Positions 13,609 through 22,487 of a stretch of 64,000 nucleotides of DNA are shown in pieces. The notes under the pieces are model-generated. The model searched no databases. It saw nothing but the letters and a program-made list of their open reading frames with translations, and had not been told where the DNA came from. Each line of letters begins with the position of its first letter. The stretch's first letter is position 1. The translations under genes and the position numbers were made by a program. Source of the DNA: Novosphingobium decolorationis (GTDB lineage Bacteria > Pseudomonadota > Alphaproteobacteria > Sphingomonadales > Sphingomonadaceae). Location of the stretch: positions 1,217,001 to 1,281,000 of the forward strand of contig NZ_CP054856.1 of assembly GCF_018417475.1 (NCBI RefSeq). The letters are read 5' to 3'.

Positions 13609-14079
13609 ATGGTCAGAAAAACGTTTGCAGGCGATTTGGATGAGGTGGATCGCCGGATTATCTCGGTATTGCGTGCAGATGGGCGCAAAACCGTCACCGA
13701 TCTGGCGCGCGAGGTCGGCATCTCGAAAACGCCCTGCCAGATCCGCATGCGACGCCTGATCGACAGCGGTGTGATTCGCGGCTTCCAGGCCGTCGTCGAT
13801 CCCGCGACCCTGGGCCTCGATCACATCGCCTTTGTCGAGATCGGCCTTGCCAGCACGCACGAGAAGGCGCTCACGGACTTCAACGAGGCGGTGCGGCGTA
13901 TCCCTGAGGTGGAGGAGTGCCACATGATCGCGGGCAGCTTCGACTACCTGCTCAAGGTGCGCACGCTCGACATGCGCCGCTATCGCAAGGTCATGGGCGA
14001 GAAGATCACCAATCTCCCCCACGTGGCGACGACCTCGACCTTCGTGGTCATGGAAGCGGTAAAGGAAGTGCACGGGTAG
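13609..14079 (+). CDS. putR: Lrp/AsnC-family regulator, probable proline-responsive activator of putA
   Basis: A 156-residue Lrp-type regulator. The helix-turn-helix is seen in RTVTDLAREVGISKTPCQIRMRRLIDSGVIRGF-type sequence near residues 27-58 (here K-T-V-T). The RAM effector domain follows, ending in VATTSTFVVMEAVKEVHG. It is divergent from putA across 98 bp, the same arrangement as the PutR/BkdR-type activators of proline catabolism in alphaproteobacteria. It likely senses proline and switches on putA. Confidence 0.9.
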   Translation: MVRKTFAGDLDEVDRRIISVLRADGRKTVTDLAREVGISKTPCQIRMRRLIDSGVIRGFQAVVDPATLGLDHIAFVEIGLASTHEKALTDFNEAVRRIPEVEECHMIAGSFDYLLKVRTLDMRRYRKVMGEKITNLPHVATTSTFVVMEAVKEVHG

Positions 14080-14652
14080 CCCACACCCCCCTGTGCGCGA
14101 ATCGGGTCCGCCTGCGCACGTCTCCTGCGGCCAGACACGCGCCACCCCAGGTCCCGGCAGCGCCAAACGCCTGCCCGAGAGCACGCGCGCGTGTCTCGGC
14201 GGCGATCATACCCCCCCTGCCGCGCGCCCATGCGGGAAAGCGCGGGGAAACCCCTTCCCATCACGCCCTGCCCCGAACCAATGCTGCACCCCGGCATGGA
14301 TGAAGCGTGCCGCAACCTGCCACAGCGCAATGAATAAACAGGCTGTATCTTCATCGAACACTCGCATCGCAGCGAATACTATTGAACACACTACAAATCA
14401 TACAAATTCACCCGATCCGCGCACGCAACCTAAATGCAACGGGACCACTTCGGACAGCTTGGGGTTCTTTTAAAAGACCGTATCTGCTAGGGGCGCGGTC
14501 CGCATTAGGAGGAACCAGCCAGAGAACCGACACCACGGTCGGCGGACGGGAAGAGAATTATCCTTGCAGGCAGGACCAGACCGCCGGGCCACCCAGGTGG
14601 TCCCCACCCGCGCCCGCACCGGCGCATCCTTGCACGCGCAGCCCGCGCGCTT
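14080..14652 (+). other. Long non-coding stretch before the symporter operon
   Basis: No convincing gene is seen in this 573-bp stretch. The right half (about 14330-14480) is clearly AT-richer than its surroundings and contains the 12-bp palindrome TCTTTTAAAAGA (14466-14477). A strong Shine-Dalgarno-like TAGGAGGAA lies at 14506-14514, but no ATG, GTG or TTG follows within 15 bases in any frame. An open frame with ATG at 14382 crosses the region but has shadow-like arginine/alanine-rich composition and was rejected. Confidence 0.5.
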
Positions 14653-15087
14653 CTGACGCGGATCGGCACGCTCGCGCTCGCGCTCGCGCTCGCCCTCTCC
14701 GCCACGTCGGCGATCTCGGCCGACGCGCACGACGAGACGCCCGCCTTCACGCACGAAGAGGCACTGACCAGCGACAACGGCTATACCACGCTGGAATGGG
14801 ACGCCGTGCGCCCGGTGGTGGTGCGGCAAGGCTCCACCCCGGCCATGAGCGCAGCCCGCACCATCTTCGAAGGAACGGGCACGCGCCTCTTCGTCAGCGG
14901 ACTGACGGATGGCGACTACTATTTCACGATCGCCGATGCCGCAGCGGGGGCCCCGCCCTCGCCGCCGCTGCACCTTGCGGTCATGCACCAGTCGCTCTCC
15001 CGCGCGCTCTGGCTGACGGCTCTGGGCGCGCTGGTCTTCGCCGCCACCGTCTTCGTCATTCTCCGCGGGGCCTGCCGTGAGCGTTGA
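14653..15087 (+). CDS. Signal-peptide membrane-anchored protein of the symporter operon, start unresolved
   Basis: About 144 residues: a signal-like TRIGTLALALALALSATSAISADA, a globular region (GYTTLEWDA, RLFVSGLTDGDYYFTIADAA) and one C-terminal membrane helix (ALWLTALGALVFAATVFVIL). The middle resembles a fibronectin-III-like beta domain facing the periplasm. No family was recognised with certainty. The frame is open back to 14509 but holds no ATG, GTG or TTG before GTG 14806, which would remove the signal peptide. The CTG at 14653 is offered because it would give a compact signal peptide; a lost start codon is the alternative. It overlaps the symporter gene by 11 bp, so the two are coupled. 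Confidence 0.55.
   Translation: MTRIGTLALALALALSATSAISADAHDETPAFTHEEALTSDNGYTTLEWDAVRPVVVRQGSTPAMSAARTIFEGTGTRLFVSGLTDGDYYFTIADAAAGAPPSPPLHLAVMHQSLSRALWLTALGALVFAATVFVILRGACRER
14671..14694 (+). repeat. Hexanucleotide repeat encoding Leu-Ala in a signal peptide
   Basis: CTCGCG is repeated three times followed by CTCGCC. The unit is six bases, so copy changes would lengthen or shorten the hydrophobic core of the signal peptide by Leu-Ala pairs without shifting frame. Confidence 0.65.
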
Positions 15088-16501
15088 ACAGGCCCTTCTT
15101 CCGCCCTGGCTTGGCTGGACGCTGCTGCTGGGCTTCTCGGTGCTGTGGATCGGGCTTGGCATCTACTGGGGGCGGCGCAACACGAGCTTCGAGGACCATG
15201 CCCTGGCCGGGCGCAACATCGGCCTTGCGCTCGGTTCGGCGACGGCGGCGGCGACCTGGATCACCTCGAACACGACCATGCTCGCCCCGCAGATGGCGCT
15301 GCAGCTGGGCGTATGGGGGATGCTCGCCTATTCGACCGCCTCGCTTGGCCTGTTCCTCTTCGCGCCGATGGCCACACGCATCCGCCAGCTCATGCCGACA
15401 GGCTACACCAGCGGCGACTTCTTCCGCCTGCGCTATGGCCGCGTGGCCTGGGGCATCTTCCTCGCCTTCACGCTGTTCTATTCGCTCACCTGGCTGGTCT
15501 CGATGGCGATGGCGGGCGGCATCCTCCTCAACACGCTTTCGGGCATTCCCTATGGCTGGGGGATGAGCGTGATCCTGGCCGTGTGCGTGGCCTACACGAT
15601 GCGCGGCGGGCTGGGCGCGGTCATCGGCACCGACTTCATCCAGAGCCTCATCATCATCATCGGCATCGTCGTGGTCGGCATCGCGGTCCTCGCCCATGTC
15701 GGGGTGGACGAGATCCACGCCAACCTCGCGCGCGAGCGGCCCGAGCTTCTCAATGTCCTGTTCCCGGCCGCCCTCATGGCGATCTTCAACAACCTGCTCT
15801 TCGGCCTTGGCGAGGTGTTCCACAACAACGTGTGGTGGAGCCGCGCCTTCGCCTTTCGCGAGGGCGTTGCGGGCAAGGCCTTCGCGCTGGGCGGCCTGAT
15901 CTGGTTTCCCATTCCCTTTGCCGCCGGCTTCATCGCGCTGGCTTCGGGCGCGCTCGACGTGCCTGTCCCCAGCGCCGACATGGTCGGTCCGCTGGTGGTG
16001 GCCAAGGTGCTGGGCATCGGCGGCGCGGTGGGCATCTTCGTCATCGTCTTCTGCTCGCTCGCCTCCTCGATCGACAGCCTGCTGGCGGCCACCTCGGACC
16101 TTCTTACCGAGGACGTCTACCGCCGCCTCCTGCGCCCCTCGGCCAGCCCGGAGACGCTCAAGGCCACCGCGCAGTGGATCACGCTGGGCCTGGGCCTCTT
16201 CACCTGGCTGGTCTGCCTGCCACGCATCGGCACGCTCGCCTCGGTGCTGTTCTTCGCAGGACCGCTGGTGGGCGCGATGATCTGGCCCATCGTCACCGGC
16301 CTCTACTGGCGCCGCGCCAGCACAACAGGCGCGGTGGGCGGCATGCTGCTGGGCGCCGGTGTCGGCCTCATCAGCTACTTCGCCATCGGTTTCTACGTCG
16401 CCTCGCTCGTTGCCACGGCCGTCTCGATGGTCTGGGTGCTCGCCTGCGCGCTTCTGTCCCGCTCCCGCTTCGACTGGAGCCAACTGCGAGAGGCCTCCTG
16501 A
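15077..16501 (+). CDS. Sodium:solute symporter family protein
   Basis: A 474-residue inner-membrane carrier of the SSS family, which drives solute uptake with sodium. Thirteen or so hydrophobic segments are seen. Diagnostic stretches include SFEDHALAGRNIGLALGSATAAATWITSNT, MPTGYTSGDFFRLRYGR and IVFCSLASSIDSLLAATSDLLTEDVYRR, the last being the sodium-site helix. It resembles urea/amino-acid type members, but the substrate cannot be fixed from sequence. It starts at GTG 15077 inside the upstream gene and its stop shares one base with the next start. Linkage to carbamoyltransferase and asparagine synthetase genes suggests a nitrogen-rich substrate. Confidence 0.92.
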   Translation: MSVEQALLPPWLGWTLLLGFSVLWIGLGIYWGRRNTSFEDHALAGRNIGLALGSATAAATWITSNTTMLAPQMALQLGVWGMLAYSTASLGLFLFAPMATRIRQLMPTGYTSGDFFRLRYGRVAWGIFLAFTLFYSLTWLVSMAMAGGILLNTLSGIPYGWGMSVILAVCVAYTMRGGLGAVIGTDFIQSLIIIIGIVVVGIAVLAHVGVDEIHANLARERPELLNVLFPAALMAIFNNLLFGLGEVFHNNVWWSRAFAFREGVAGKAFALGGLIWFPIPFAAGFIALASGALDVPVPSADMVGPLVVAKVLGIGGAVGIFVIVFCSLASSIDSLLAATSDLLTEDVYRRLLRPSASPETLKATAQWITLGLGLFTWLVCLPRIGTLASVLFFAGPLVGAMIWPIVTGLYWRRASTTGAVGGMLLGAGVGLISYFAIGFYVASLVATAVSMVWVLACALLSRSRFDWSQLREAS

Positions 16502-16623
16502 TGACCTTCTCAAGTTCCTTCCTTGCCCTGCTGGTCTACGGATCGCTGGGCTGGTGCATGTTCACCGCGCTCGGCCTCGCCGCCCTGCTCATCCGCGACA
16601 TCCGGCGCGGAGAGATCTGGTGA
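16501..16623 (+). CDS. 40-residue single-helix membrane protein
   Basis: A short frame starting at ATG 16501, which shares its A with the symporter stop. The protein has one hydrophobic helix (residues ~7-30, LALLVYGSLGWCMFTALGLAALLI) followed by basic RDIRRGEIW. It ends by overlapping the next gene (GTGA). The perfect coupling on both sides argues that it is real. A small helper subunit of the symporter is likely; no family is recognised. Confidence 0.75.
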   Translation: MTFSSSFLALLVYGSLGWCMFTALGLAALLIRDIRRGEIW

Positions 16624-17741
16624 GCCGCGACGTGTCCCCTGCCTCGCACGTCTGCCACGCGCCGGTCATCGTCAAGCGCCCGGGCAAGATCGGCAATTGC
16701 CCCAACCCGGCCGACTACATCGCCAACGCCCCACAGATCCGCCGCGCCGTGCTCGACCGGCTGCGCGGGCAGTCGGTCCTTTCCGCCGCGCTGTTCGACA
16801 AGGACCTCCTGACCGAACTGGCGAAGTTCGCCGCCTACCTCCAGCTCAAGCGCTTCGAGGTGGAAACGGCGATGAGCGACAAGATCATGGCCGCCGCCTT
16901 CTTCGAGCCCTCCACCCGCACGCGGCTCTCGTTCGAGAGCGCGATGCTGCATCTGGGCGGCAAGACGATCAGCGTGGCCGATGGCAAGACGACCGGCGTC
17001 GCCAAGGGCGAATCCATGCGCGACATCGGGCAGATGTTCAATTCCTACGCCGATGTCGTGGTGGTGCGCCACACCGAGCAGGCCGCCCTCTCCGACATGT
17101 GCGAGTACCTGCGCGTGCCGCTCATCAACGGGGGCAACGGTTCGGACGAGCACCCCACGCAAGCGCTGGCCGACTGGTACGCGCTCCTCAAATGGCGCCC
17201 CGAGATCACCTTCGGCCGCCTGCCCGAGGAATTCCGCCTCAACATCGGCATCATCGGCACGCCGGGCAACATGCGCACGGTCAAGAGCTTCCTGATGCTC
17301 GCCCTGCTCTTCCACGAGAACATCAACCGCATCACCATCTTCTCCGAGATGGCCGATCCCTTGGGCGAGGAACTGCGCGAGCTGACCAAGAACAGCCCGA
17401 TCACCATCGGCTTCTCGCAGAGCCTGACGCAAAATCTCGAATATCTCGACGTCATCTACATGAACGCAATCGCCTATATCGGCGATGGCTACCGCTTCTT
17501 CGCCGACGCCTTCTCGCTCTCGTCCGAAAGCCGGATCAAGCCCGACACGGTGATCCTTCACCCGCTGGCCCGCGGGCTCGAGCTCGACGTCAGCCTCGAT
17601 GACAGCCCCCACAACCTCTACTTCAACCAGGCCGATGGTGCGGTGTGGATCCGCCAGGCGCTGCTCCTCGCGATCTTCGGGCGGGTGACCGACGTGGTGC
17701 CCCCCGACATGCTCGACGACGAGCCCCTCCCCAGCGCCTGA
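16620..17741 (+). CDS. Aspartate carbamoyltransferase paralogue
   Basis: A 373-residue member of the aspartate/ornithine carbamoyltransferase family. The carbamoyl-phosphate motif EPSTRTRLSFE is near residue 97, followed by a VAKGESMRDIGQMFNSYADVVVVRH stretch like the ATCase 80s loop. GSDEHPTQALADW is near 178. The second-substrate loop reads HPLAR (314-318), where ATCases have HPLPR; the cis-proline is replaced by alanine. It is longer than PyrB (about 310) by an N-terminal extension and inserts. The start is GTG 16620, overlapping the 40-residue gene. It is not in a pyr operon but in one with a symporter and asparagine synthetase, so it is probably not the housekeeping enzyme. The acceptor is unknown. 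Confidence 0.88.
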   Translation: MSRDVSPASHVCHAPVIVKRPGKIGNCPNPADYIANAPQIRRAVLDRLRGQSVLSAALFDKDLLTELAKFAAYLQLKRFEVETAMSDKIMAAAFFEPSTRTRLSFESAMLHLGGKTISVADGKTTGVAKGESMRDIGQMFNSYADVVVVRHTEQAALSDMCEYLRVPLINGGNGSDEHPTQALADWYALLKWRPEITFGRLPEEFRLNIGIIGTPGNMRTVKSFLMLALLFHENINRITIFSEMADPLGEELRELTKNSPITIGFSQSLTQNLEYLDVIYMNAIAYIGDGYRFFADAFSLSSESRIKPDTVILHPLARGLELDVSLDDSPHNLYFNQADGAVWIRQALLLAIFGRVTDVVPPDMLDDEPLPSA

Positions 17742-17799
17742 ATGCCCAGCGCCTGAGCGCCCCGCCCCAGCCAACACCCAACCCAAGGAAACACCCGAT

Positions 17800-19743
17800 A
17801 TGTGCGGCATTGCCGGTCTCTGGACCCCAGCGGGCCATGACCAAGACACGCCCCGCCACGCCGAGGCGATGGCCGACCAGCTGGAACATCGCGGGCCCGA
17901 CGGGCGCGGCTTCCATTTCGATCCGGCAAACGGCCTTGCCATGGCGCACACGCGGCTCTCGATCATCGGCCTCAACGCCGGGGACCAGCCGCTCCATGGT
18001 CGCAGCGACGATGGCACGGGCGGGCTCGTCGCCTCGGTCAACGGCGAGTTCTACGACTACAAGCGCCTGCGCGGCCTGCTGCGCACCGACGGCTTCCAGT
18101 TCTCGACCAGGTCCGACAGCGAGATCGCGCTGAAACTCTACGCCAAGCATGGCCTCGATTTCGTCGAGCACCTGCGCGGCGAATTTGCCTTTGCCCTGTT
18201 CGACGAGGAGAGGCAGCCCCTGATCCTGGTGCGCGACCGCTTCGGCATCCGTCCCCTCTTCGTCCACCACGGGCCGCGCGGGGTCATCTGGGGCAGCGAG
18301 ATCAAGGCCCTGCTCGCCCATCCGGACGTGCCCCGCGATGTCTGCCCCCGGGCCCAGCTGCACCAGATGATGCAGGTCATGGTGCCGGGCATGACGCTCT
18401 ATCAGGGCATCGAGGCGGTAAAGCCGGGCACGATGCTCATCATCGAGAAGGCAGGCGATAGCGTGTCGGTGCGCGAGGAGCGCTACTGGGACGCCAATTT
18501 CCCGCGCGAGGGAGAGCACGACATCAAGAGCGATGACGACCACATCGAGGCGGTGCGCGCCGCCCTGGTCGAATCGATCACCTTCCGGCTCGAGGCCGAC
18601 GTTCCGGTCGCCTGCTACCTATCCGGGGGGATCGACAGCTGTTCGATCCTGGGCATGGCCGCCGCGATCCAGCAGTCGCCGGTCAAGGCCTTCACCATCT
18701 CCTTCGACGATGCCCGCTACGACGAGGCCCATATCGCGACGGAAATGGCGCAGATGGCCGGCGCCGACCAGGACATCCTGAAGCTCAAGGCCGAGGACCT
18801 CTACGGCTCCAACTTCGAGAACGCGATCCGCTATTCCGAGCGGACCTTCTACAACACGCTGGGCGTCGCCAAGATGCTAATGAGCAAGCACGTGCGCGAG
18901 GTCGGCTACAAGGTCGTCATCACCGGCGAGGGATCGGACGAGCTGTTCGGCGGCTATGCCCAGTTCAAGGCCGACCTGTTCCTGCACGATCCCGAATACG
19001 CGGCCACTCCGGCGGCGCAGGAAATGCGGGAGAGGAACGCGCTGTTCTCGGGCTCGGTGCTCGCCGAGGAGGCGATCAGCCACCCCGCCTTCGAGGATGT
19101 CATGGGCTTCACCCCCAGCTGGATCCAGCCCTGGATGCTCACCCTCGAACGCGTAAAGCCGCTGCTGTCCGAAGAGTTCAAGGCGAAGCTGGGCGACTAT
19201 GACCCCATCGCCGCCATCGCCCACAGCCTCGACCCGGCCATGCTGGAAGGCCGCCATGTCCTCGACAAGGTGCAGTACTCGTGGATCAAGACGATGCTGG
19301 AGGGGCAGATCCTCAACTGGGGCGGGGACCGCGTCGACATGGCCAACAGCCTCGAAAGCCGCCCGGCCTTCCTCGACCACCACGTCGCCGAACTTGCCAT
19401 GCGCATCCCCCCGCAGGTGCGCGTGCGCGGCGGCGTCGAGAAGTGGGTGGTGCGTGAAGCCATGAAGCACGTGCTCCCACGCGTCCTTTACGAGCGCGAG
19501 AAGTTCGCCTTCATGGCGCCACCCGCGCACACCGATGCGAAGAAAACCGCCGAGATCGACAAGCTGATCGCGCGCTGGCTATCGCCCGAGCGCCTGGCCG
19601 CCAAGGGCCTGTTCGATCCGGCAAAGCTGGGCGCGGCCATCGCGGACTACCGCGCCTCGGACGACCACGCGCAGAACACGCGCATGGACATCATCCTCAA
19701 CCACGCCATCGGCCTGCACGCCGTGGAAGAGCTTCTGGTTTAG
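17800..19743 (+). CDS. asnB: Asparagine synthetase, glutamine-hydrolysing
   Basis: A 647-residue class-II glutamine amidotransferase. Cys2 of MCGIAGLW is the glutaminase nucleophile after Met removal. EHRGPDGRG, the SVNGEFYDYKRLR glutamine pocket and FALFDEERQPLILVRDRFGIRPLF are present. The synthetase domain has the ATP-binding SGGIDS and later GEGSDELFGGYAQFK. The long C-terminal part (DRVDMANSLESRPAFLDHHVAELAMRIPP) matches the AsnB-like group. A ribosome-binding site AAGGAAA precedes the start. It lies 58 bp after the carbamoyltransferase, so the two are probably co-transcribed. Aspartate would be a shared substrate if both enzymes keep their parental specificity. Confidence 0.93.
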   Translation: MCGIAGLWTPAGHDQDTPRHAEAMADQLEHRGPDGRGFHFDPANGLAMAHTRLSIIGLNAGDQPLHGRSDDGTGGLVASVNGEFYDYKRLRGLLRTDGFQFSTRSDSEIALKLYAKHGLDFVEHLRGEFAFALFDEERQPLILVRDRFGIRPLFVHHGPRGVIWGSEIKALLAHPDVPRDVCPRAQLHQMMQVMVPGMTLYQGIEAVKPGTMLIIEKAGDSVSVREERYWDANFPREGEHDIKSDDDHIEAVRAALVESITFRLEADVPVACYLSGGIDSCSILGMAAAIQQSPVKAFTISFDDARYDEAHIATEMAQMAGADQDILKLKAEDLYGSNFENAIRYSERTFYNTLGVAKMLMSKHVREVGYKVVITGEGSDELFGGYAQFKADLFLHDPEYAATPAAQEMRERNALFSGSVLAEEAISHPAFEDVMGFTPSWIQPWMLTLERVKPLLSEEFKAKLGDYDPIAAIAHSLDPAMLEGRHVLDKVQYSWIKTMLEGQILNWGGDRVDMANSLESRPAFLDHHVAELAMRIPPQVRVRGGVEKWVVREAMKHVLPRVLYEREKFAFMAPPAHTDAKKTAEIDKLIARWLSPERLAAKGLFDPAKLGAAIADYRASDDHAQNTRMDIILNHAIGLHAVEELLV

Positions 19744-21076: not shown

Positions 21077-22359
21077 TCAGACCCGCTCGGCCTGTCCGGC
21101 CTCTTCCAGCGCGCCCTCGTTGCAGGCAAGCTCGCACACGCATTCGTAGAGAAGCCGCGTTCCGCGCTCGCAATCGACCCAGTGCGTCCATTCATCGGGC
21201 GCGTGGCTCACGCCCTTTACAGACGGCACGAAGAACAGCCCCGCGCGCGAATGCTCGCAGAAGAACTGCACGTCGTGGCCTGCGCCCGAGGGCATGATCT
21301 TGTAGCTGTAGCCCAACTCCTTCGTCTTGCCCTCGATCAGCGAGATGAGCCCCGTGTCGCAATAGGCCGGGCCAGCCAGGACATCTGTTCGTATTCGAAG
21401 TGGAGCTTGTTGCGCCGCGCGATGGCGGCCAGCACCCGCTCGCACGCGCTGGCCAGGGCCTTCATCTTCTCGTGGTCGAGGTCGCGCCCGACGATGGTGA
21501 AATCGACCTCACCCGGCACCGTGTGCGGGAAGCCGGGCTTGCAGTTGACATGGCCGATGGTGATGCGGCTCTTGCCGGTGCCCTCCTCCTCGATGATGCG
21601 CGGGATCTCGTGGGCGAAATCGGCCATGCCCATGAGCGCATCGGCGCGCATGTTCATCGGCGCGGTCCCGGCGTGGTCGGCCTTGCCGATGAGGCGCACC
21701 ATCCACTTGAAGACGCCGGAAATTCCTTCGACGATGCCGATGGTGGTCTTCTCGGTATCAAGGACGGGCCCCTGCTCGACATGAAGTTCAAGGTAGGCCC
21801 GGATCGTCTCGGGCGGGCGGTAGGCGTGCATTGCGCGGGAAGGATCGAGCCCGGCCTCGCGCATGGCATCGACCAGTTTGACGCCGCGCTCGTCCGCCGC
21901 GGCATCGAGCCATTCGCGGGTCAGGTGCCCGGTCATGGCCTGCGCGCCGAGCATGCCCCCGAAGCGCCCCTCCTCCTCGGCGGTCGCGATGACCTCGACC
22001 GGATAGAGCGGCTCGATCCCGTTCGCCTTCATCGTGCGCACCACCTCGAGCCCGGCAACGACGCCCAGCACCCCGTCGAACATGCCGCTCGCGGGCACGG
22101 AATCGGTGTGCGAGGCGATGATGACGGCGGGCACGTCCTCGCCCCGTCCGGCCGGATCGAAGCGGCCGATGACATTGCCCGCGCCGTCCATGCGGTGGCT
22201 CATGCCCAATTCCGCAAAGCGCGCACGCAGCCATTCGCGCACGGCCATGTCCTCGGGGCTGAAGCCCTGTCGGTAGACGCCCCCGTCCGCTTCATTGAAG
22301 CCGAAACGCGAAATGGCGGTGATGTCCCGCTCGATCCTCTAGATGCTGACGCTGGGCAC
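21077..22359 (-). pseudogene. M20-family N-carbamoyl-amino-acid/allantoate-type amidohydrolase, two lesions
   Basis: The protein clearly belongs to the M20 hydantoinase/carbamoylase group: IASHTDSVPASGMFDGVLGVVAGLEVV, ATAEEEGRFGGMLGAQAMTG, LELHVEQGPVLD and PSGAGHDVQFF supply the metal ligands. The natural start is GTG 22359, eight or so bases after AAGGGAG. The seventh codon is TAG (22339-22341) where the family has a sense codon; the frame continues cleanly after it (RIERDITAISRFGFNEADGG). A one-base deletion near 21371-21376 breaks MSWL(D)PAYCDTG. An internal ATG at 22248 could restart translation but cannot avoid the frameshift. The function is therefore lost in this strain unless these are sequencing errors. 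Confidence 0.88.
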
Positions 22360-22487
22360 GTGCGTCTCCCTTGTCCGGTATGTGCGGCGCGGATTCCCCA
22401 CGCTCTGTTGGCGGGGAGACTAGACGCCACCACGGGGACGGGGCAAGCCGGGGAAACTGCAGCGCAGGCACCCGGCCTGCGGGTGCC

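What the first reader, a model, noticed from the sequence alone, without database searches (positions are those of the whole stretch)
14653..19743. Coupled operon: signal-peptide protein, sodium symporter, 40-residue membrane protein, carbamoyltransferase paralogue, asparagine synthetase
The first four genes overlap by 1 to 11 bp and asnB follows by 58 bp. An ATCase-family enzyme outside a pyr operon, tied to a solute carrier and a glutamine-dependent synthetase, is not a pathway I recognise. Aspartate, carbamoyl phosphate and amide nitrogen are shared themes. Across the strand lie an MFS carrier and a dead M20 N-carbamoyl amidohydrolase, so a ureido/carbamoyl compound is a reasonable guess. 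The system could import a substrate and either build or dismantle an N-carbamoyl amino acid.
Basis: partly seen in the sequence, partly recalled or inferred. Interest (0 to 1): 0.78.

Follow-up and report, generated by a model that had tools for sequence, protein, structure and literature searches.

The report
Gene set for a carbamoyl-amide osmolyte
A five-gene block from a marine-type Novosphingobium looks like the unrecognised pathway for a rare salt-protecting molecule, a glutamine capped at both ends, and a related gene set occurs in bacteria that very probably include the species from which that molecule was described.

Summary
The operon is real. It is best read as a compatible-solute cassette. 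The carbamoyltransferase (CT) is one of three in the genome; true PyrB and OTC lie elsewhere. All five genes occur in 29 of 31 related alphaproteobacterial loci and 4 of 4 Nitrosomonadaceae loci. A diverged CT is in 23 of 369 gammaproteobacteria; in 20 fetched loci it lies with AsnB (18), an M20 N-carbamoyl-amino-acid hydrolase (19), an isochorismatase-family hydrolase (19) and the symporter (15). CT keeps the carbamoyl-phosphate site but lost the ATCase TRxQ motif. [quoted passage not shown] CT is in 38 of 38 good genomes of a family that I identify as Ectothiorhodospiraceae; one fits E. marismortui in size, GC and reaction-centre genes, and its locus reads M20-isochorismatase-CT-AsnB. Searches of the held papers found no CGA gene. 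The product is inferred: no enzyme or metabolite was tested, and glutamine as acceptor is the weakest step.

The parts
14653..15087 (+). P1: membrane-anchored periplasmic protein (N-terminal hydrophobic stretch, fibronectin-III-like beta sandwich, C-terminal TM helix). Start codon unsettled.
   Evidence: window plus 18 relatives aligned; AlphaFold pLDDT 89.1; best PDB matches fn3 domains, E 9e-4; start problem. Absent from the 5 of 20 gamma loci that lack SSS and P3, and from one more, L097.
15077..16501 (+). SSS-family sodium:solute symporter, proposed solute uptake or retrieval
   Evidence: PF00474; closest solved relatives are DUR3 urea symporters, E 2.7e-33; below the cut-offs of the 6 SSS models matched
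16501..16623 (+). P3: 40-residue single-TM protein ending in W, proposed small symporter subunit
   Evidence: relatives printed there are 40 aa and end in W; one shown as a partial alignment; no NCBIfam match; no Pfam match
16620..17741 (+). CT: carbamoyltransferase paralogue; proposed N-alpha-carbamoylation of a neutral amino acid, most likely glutamine
17800..19743 (+). AsnB-like glutamine-dependent amidotransferase; proposed amidation of the alpha-carboxyl group
   Evidence: MCGIAG start here; all 63 full copies that were picked by that start also hold SGGIDSC
21125..22365 (-). Broken M20 N-carbamoyl-amino-acid hydrolase gene (early stop plus frame change); the intact gene is a conserved partner elsewhere

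Best explanation
The block is a compatible-solute (osmolyte) cassette. CT transfers the carbamoyl group of carbamoyl phosphate to the alpha-amino group of a neutral amino acid, most likely L-glutamine. The AsnB-like enzyme then amidates the alpha-carboxyl group, using glutamine nitrogen and ATP. [quoted passage not shown] P1-SSS-P3 form a three-part sodium symporter that imports or retrieves the solute. The M20 hydrolase (broken in this genome), helped elsewhere by an isochorismatase-family hydrolase, removes the caps when the solute is recycled. Shown: gene content, co-linearity, active-site changes, distribution. Inferred: substrate, order of steps, product, role of each accessory part.
For: (1) Conservation: CT+AsnB+SSS in 31 of 31 loci L004-L034, P1 and P3 in 30 each, M20 in 26; 4 of 4 Nitrosomonadaceae loci have P1-SSS-P3-CT-AsnB, one of them also M20. 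(2) In 20 gamma loci (of 23 CT-positive genomes): AsnB 18, M20 19, isochorismatase 19, SSS 15, P3 15, P1 14, mostly on one strand in one run. (3) CT is a clade apart from PyrB and OTC of the same genomes (96/96). It keeps STRTR, KGE, HPTQ and MRT with few exceptions, but ATCase 'Y.TR.Q' has become 'Y.N[AS]IA'. (4) M20 relatives pass the hydantoinase/carbamoylase cut-off (343-349 against 204). Top model is a subfamily labelled allantoate amidohydrolase (485-502 against 399); the best equivalog is N-carbamyl-L-glutamate amidohydrolase ErtE, below its cut-off (351-367 against 520). (5) CT in 41 of 47 genomes (38 of 38 good ones) of the family of G616. Two contigs have exactly the published lengths of Ectothiorhodospira sp. 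BSL-9 (3,550,080) and T. sulfidophilus HL-EbGr7 (3,464,554). G823 fits E. marismortui in size, GC and reaction-centre genes and has M20-isochorismatase-CT-AsnB (L082). (6) Osmotic neighbours: sucrose synthase in 12 of 17 loci of that family, MscS channel in 5 of 17. (7) Parallel: the NAGGN operon pairs an AsnB-type amidotransferase with an N-capping enzyme and a peptidase under a MarR repressor (PMC8070244, passages). (8) Named hosts include marine Novosphingobium, Croceicoccus, Nitrosomonas marina and aestuarii, Alteromonas, Idiomarina (habitats recalled or from the names).
Against: No enzyme assay, metabolite or salt-response data. CGA was called a minor solute of E. marismortui and gave no Raman signal there, though it was not in that reference library. 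The genome paper of T. sulfidophilus HL-EbGr7 reports betaine and sucrose, not CGA, although that very genome (G906, L163) has the metabolic set and the symporter; likewise K90mix's paper reports no CGA. The E. marismortui-like locus lacks SSS, P1 and P3, and the window genome has no close isochorismatase partner (best 26% identity). Its M20 is broken. M20 is absent from 3 of 4 Nitrosomonadaceae loci; MscS is in only 2 of 20 sampled gamma loci. CT stands without its partners in L098 and L162. The window and Ectothiorhodospira CTs are 46% identical over 313 residues, so the product could differ. The acceptor (Gln, Asn or other) is not settled by sequence. Some hosts are not marine as far as I recall (Thiothrix nivea, N. 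endophyticum).
Confidence: 0.6

Rival explanations
1. Same two-cap logic and osmolyte or nitrogen-store role, but the window clade caps another amino acid (for example asparagine), giving a new N-carbamoyl amino acid amide rather than CGA.
For: CT and AsnB of the window are only 46% and 52% identical to those of the E. marismortui-like locus L082; sequence does not fix the side chain.
Against: The acceptor motif Y.N[AS]IA and the core partners are shared by both clades; CGA is the only such single-amino-acid solute that I know of (recalled).
Confidence: 0.2
2. Scavenging system: the DUR3-like symporter imports a ureido or N-carbamoyl compound, M20 and the isochorismatase enzyme strip it, and CT works towards carbamoyl phosphate.
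For: SSS is closest to urea symporters among solved structures; M20 and isochorismatase are in the same run of genes in gammaproteobacteria.
Against: An ATP- and glutamine-consuming AsnB partner in 31 of 31 and 18 of 20 loci points to synthesis; Ectothiorhodospira loci keep CT and AsnB without SSS. I saw no carbamate kinase among recurrent neighbours but did not search for one.
Confidence: 0.1
3. Ordinary paralogues: a spare ATCase plus asparagine synthetase for aspartate-family metabolism.
For: AsnB passes the TIGR01536 cut-off (396.8 against 267.1); public names say aspartate carbamoyltransferase.
Against: CT fails all PyrB and OTC cut-offs listed, lacks the TRxQ motif and forms its own clade; conservation with M20, SSS and isochorismatase is unexplained.
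Confidence: 0.04
4. A secreted signal or defence metabolite of the carbamoyl-amide type, rather than an osmolyte.
For: Patchy distribution (13 of 149 genomes of the window's genus).
Against: CT in 38 of 38 good genomes of one haloalkaliphilic family, an Na+ symporter, and sucrose synthase and MscS next door in part of the loci.
Confidence: 0.06

Closest known systems
NAGGN (N-acetylglutaminylglutamine amide) operon asnO-ngg, PA3459-PA3461
   Same: AsnB-family amidotransferase masks a carboxyl, a partner enzyme masks the amino end, a hydrolase and a MarR regulator lie alongside; the product is a neutral glutamine-derived osmolyte (PMC8070244, passages)
[quoted passage not shown] cited in PMC1224877 and PMC3857566, passages)
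   Same: Chemically what CT plus AsnB would make from glutamine; a related operon is in the family and very probably in the species
   Different: Known as a compound only; no gene named in the listings and passages
Aspartate carbamoyltransferase PyrB
   Same: Fold (TM by target 0.78-0.87 over the 50 rows shown) and carbamoyl phosphate site
   Different: Aspartate side-chain motif lost, separate clade, different operon
N-carbamoyl-L-amino acid hydrolase (M20; PDB 3n5f) and ErtE
   Same: Near full-length match of the L055 copy to 3n5f, E 2.5e-73
   Different: Below the ErtE cut-off; found beside a carbamoyltransferase and AsnB
DUR3 urea symporter (SSS)
   Same: Closest solved relatives of the carrier
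   Different: Distant match; P1 and P3 partners matched no family model

Membership tests
Aspartate carbamoyltransferase (PyrB) | TIGR00670 / NF002032 cut-offs | tested here: not met
   171.2 against 236.95 and 163.5 against 263; L081 CT 190.1 and 190.4; the genome's own PyrB passes both
Aspartate carbamoyltransferase (PyrB) | Aspartate side-chain residues in the 'TRxQ' stretch (E. coli R229, Q231; numbering recalled) | tested here: not met
   Y.N[AS]IA instead
Aspartate carbamoyltransferase (PyrB) | Carbamoyl phosphate site (STRTR, KGE, HPTQ) | tested here: met
   (invariant columns); single exceptions in wider set (L012 has HPSQ)
Ornithine carbamoyltransferase | TIGR00658 cut-off and HCLPA motif | tested here: not met
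   92.2 against 280.85; HPLAR instead
Asparagine synthetase (TIGR01536) | Cut-off; N-terminal Cys; SGGxDS loop | tested here: met
   396.8 against 267.1, sequence; but the genome's XrtA-type AsnB also passes (480.1), so this does not show asparagine as product
NAGGN cluster | AsnO equivalog TIGR03104 | tested here: not met
   278.5 against 570.1; 306.8 for L081
NAGGN cluster | Ngg acetyltransferase/ligase next door | tested here: inconclusive
   none among the neighbours that I identified; no targeted search of the genomes was made
Hydantoinase/carbamoylase family (TIGR01879) | Model cut-off for the M20 partner | tested here: met
   348.0, 349.1 and 343.5 against 204 in three open copies; window fragment 244.2
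CGA biosynthesis pathway | Operon in the organism that makes CGA | tested here: inconclusive
CGA biosynthesis pathway | Enzymes make CGA | not testable with these tools
   needs assay or NMR

The most novel reading that the evidence does not exclude
[quoted passage not shown] It has its own three-part sodium symporter (P1-SSS-P3) and its own degradation enzymes.
Probability: 0.55. Interest if true: 0.87.

Novelty: new variant of a known kind. Interest (0 to 1): 0.8.

Why it matters
If true, a compound described in 1991 gets its enzymes, and possibly thousands of proteins now named aspartate carbamoyltransferase get another function (2210 of 8000 scored candidates at E <= 1e-60 to the family profile; that number may include true PyrB). 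It would predict a nitrogen-rich, transportable solute in many marine bacteria, a possible currency of marine dissolved organic nitrogen. It would add a second, independently built amino-cap-plus-amide osmolyte beside NAGGN. It also makes testable which residues turn an aspartate enzyme into one for a neutral amino acid.

Tried and rejected
Riboswitch or RNA upstream: none (one chance-level match). Plasmid carriage: the one hit was a distant carbamoyltransferase in an Aeromonas caviae record. MFS and PutA as parts: MFS found in 2 and PutA (69% or more) in 3 of 31 relatives; the Lrp-type regulator at 13609-14079 goes with PutA. Other conserved genes: in the clustering I recognised none shared as widely as P1-P5, M20 and isochorismatase; many small clusters were not annotated. 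E. marismortui by name: three protein searches, each listing 120 rows of which only part bear names, did not list it, so I went by genome family. An earlier count said 27 of 31 loci with M20; the correct count is 26. A planned test of mutual exclusion with ectoine genes was not run.
Full report
WHAT IS THERE. Five + strand genes at about 14653-19743 encode P1 (144 aa as read), an SSS symporter (474 aa), P3 (40 aa), a carbamoyltransferase CT (373 aa) and an AsnB-like amidotransferase (647 aa). Steps are -11, -1, -4 and +58 bp. The start of P1 is not a standard codon. The genome (4.75 Mb, 2 contigs) has three OTCace_N matches: this one, one with OTC motifs and one that passes the PyrB cut-offs. 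Its only other full-length AsnB match is the XrtA/EPS type. Upstream lie PutA and an Lrp-type regulator, downstream an MFS carrier; these are found only in 2-3 of 31 relatives.

CONSERVATION. One scan of GTDB genomes returned 31 relatives: Novosphingobium, Croceicoccus, Erythrobacteraceae-type genomes (Altererythrobacter, Erythrobacter, Alteraurantiacibacter, Caenibius), two Alphaproteobacteria MAGs and a Hirschia MAG. CT, AsnB and SSS are together in 31 of 31; P1 and P3 in 30 of 31 each (P1 missing in L029, where the contig ends; P3 missed my threshold in L022, though seen at E 0.04); M20 within 9 kb in 26 of 31 (not in L020, L026, L030, L032, L033; some of these loci are short). In the window's genus 13 of 149 genomes have CT at E <= 1e-60, the window genome included; in a Pseudomonadota sample 2 of 398, one of them the window genome. 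In the family of G102, which I take for Nitrosomonadaceae (ammonia monooxygenase; CT of G446 identical to that of N. aestuarii), 4 of 120 have CT. All four loci carry P1-SSS-P3-CT-AsnB; one of them (L055) is a diverged form with M20 divergently beside it, the other three have no M20 nearby. Named hosts of close or diverged CTs include Nitrosomonas aestuarii and marina, an Oscillatoriales MAG, Alteromonas, Idiomarina, Pseudidiomarina, Thalassomonas, Aliikangiella and Thiothrix nivea. That most are marine or halophilic is recalled or read from names, not tested.

THE GAMMAPROTEOBACTERIAL FORM. 23 of 369 genomes have the diverged CT at E <= 1e-60; I fetched loci of 20 of these 23. In them: AsnB 18, M20 19, isochorismatase-family hydrolase 19, SSS 15, P3 15, P1 14, MscS channel 2. 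Usual order on one strand: P1, M20, isochorismatase, SSS, P3, CT, AsnB. A MarR-like cluster (F6) occurs in 5 of 20 loci, on either strand; one member was checked by Pfam. SSS, P3 and P1 are missing together in L081, L082, L087, L095 and L098; L097 lacks P1 only. I read P1-SSS-P3 as one transporter and CT-AsnB-M20-isochorismatase as the metabolic module. L098 has CT alone.

ACTIVE SITES. CT fails the PyrB, OTC and other carbamoyltransferase cut-offs listed. The model (pLDDT 89.7) is closest to ATCases, two PALA-bound ones first. Alignment with P. abyssi ATCase shows STRTR, KGE, the arginine of "RH", HPTQ and the arginine of "RTV" kept, while "YVTRIQ" has become "YMNAIA" and HPLPR has become HPLAR. 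A pattern scan over 70 loci picked 68 CTs by their STRTR and HP.[AV]R stretches (so these two are there by construction; L098 and L161 were not picked). KGE is in all 68. The Y.N[AS]IA pattern is in 65 at once and in the three others on inspection (L055, L085, L093); MR is in L088 too on inspection; L012 has HPSQ for HPTQ, and L026 was not resolved. From general knowledge of E. coli ATCase (recalled), the lost residues R229 and Q231 bind the aspartate side chain and R167 the alpha-carboxylate. So the acceptor should be an amino acid with a free alpha-carboxylate and a neutral side chain. That puts carbamoylation first and AsnB amidation second, as in NAGGN, where AsnO acts last (PMC8070244, passages). 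The tree places all 35 CT rows in one group (96/96) apart from 5 PyrB and 5 OTC rows; branches are long, and the program warns about that. Window CT is 46% identical to L082 CT over 313 residues. Full AsnBs starting MCGIAG were picked in 63 of 70 loci; all 63 hold SGGIDSC; L086 and L096 have SGGIDSC too. The window AsnB is 52% identical to that of L082 and 33% to its own XrtA paralogue.

THE LINK TO A KNOWN SOLUTE. [quoted passage not shown] PMC1224877 (passages) says it is accumulated by E. marismortui and that such modifications mask the charged groups. PMC3857566 (passages) calls it found in one organism only, and a minor solute. PMC7824335 (passages) speaks more broadly of its being found in purple sulfur bacteria, only in addition to betaine in marine and halophilic species. 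Galinski and Oren 1991 itself was not read. Of the 23 CT-positive gamma genomes, 2 carry PufLM. Their family (47 genomes held) has CT in 41, and in 38 of 38 good ones. Identity: G873 contig 3,550,080 bp equals Ectothiorhodospira sp. BSL-9; G906 contig 3,464,554 bp equals T. sulfidophilus HL-EbGr7. G872 has a HiPIP 71 of 71 identical to PDB 1hpi (its host E. vacuolata is recalled). PMC8877833 (passages) gives 68.2-68.4% GC to a group of E. mobilis (2,796,053 bp, 119 contigs) and E. marismortui (DSM 4180: 2,624,954 bp, 35 contigs; DG9: 2,682,160 bp, 40 contigs), and about 62-64% to the majority. Of the 10 genomes of that genus, each sampled by its CT locus, only G823 (2.6 Mb, about 40 contigs as rounded by the tool) and G870 (2.8 Mb, about 110) are near 68-69% GC. 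So G823 fits E. marismortui and G870 E. mobilis; contig numbers agree only roughly. L082 (G823) and L160 (G870) both have M20-isochorismatase-CT-AsnB, with a sucrose-synthase-like gene divergent (the L081 copy passes the sucrose synthase cut-off). G823, G870, G446 and G000 have three OTCace_N matches each, so CT is the only spare carbamoyltransferase of this family seen. In BSL-9 the CT lies in two ORF pieces. Of 17 loci looked at in the family (of 41 positives), AsnB 15, M20 15, isochorismatase 16, SSS 4, MscS 5, sucrose synthase 12.

AGAINST. The genome papers of T. sulfidophilus HL-EbGr7 and Thioalkalivibrio sp. K90mix report betaine and sucrose, not CGA (PMC3072093, PMC3368412, passages), yet HL-EbGr7 (G906, L163) has CT, AsnB, M20, isochorismatase and SSS; CGA may be conditional or overlooked, or the product differs. 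The window genome lacks a close isochorismatase partner and its M20 is broken, so it may make the solute without degrading it this way. Nothing here measures salt response. Literature searches showed no paper naming genes for CGA; most subscription journals are missing from that library.

VERDICT. A conserved make-move-unmake cassette for a doubly capped amino acid, most likely CGA: 0.6. Same logic with another amino acid: 0.2. The finding deserves an experiment more than most.

Noticed in passing
window 21125-22365 (-): M20 N-carbamoyl hydrolase gene broken by an early stop and a frame change; open copies exist in close relatives.
   Followed up: partly
window 16501-16623 and relatives: P3 is a 40-aa membrane protein ending in tryptophan, without any Pfam or NCBIfam match; it is absent from the same 5 of 20 gamma loci that lack the symporter.
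   Followed up: partly
window 14509-15087: P1 has no ATG/GTG/TTG in frame before 14806; six of the 30 P1 relatives (L004, L005, L020, L026, L027, L034) also gave no standard start in the stretch scanned.
   Followed up: partly
G873 C1:1194650-1195584: The carbamoyltransferase of the genome identified as Ectothiorhodospira sp. BSL-9 lies in two ORF pieces.
   Followed up: no
L053 12179-13189, L054 4709-5719: In two marine-type Nitrosomonas loci the divergent neighbour is an asparaginase-2 family gene (Pfam for L053; L054 93% identical), perhaps the amide remover there.
   Followed up: no
L162 (G909) and L098 (G775): CT homologues without AsnB, M20 or the symporter nearby.
   Followed up: no
NZ_AP026896.1: A 4.9 Mb Aeromonas caviae record sits in the plasmid collection; probably a chromosome.
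   Followed up: no
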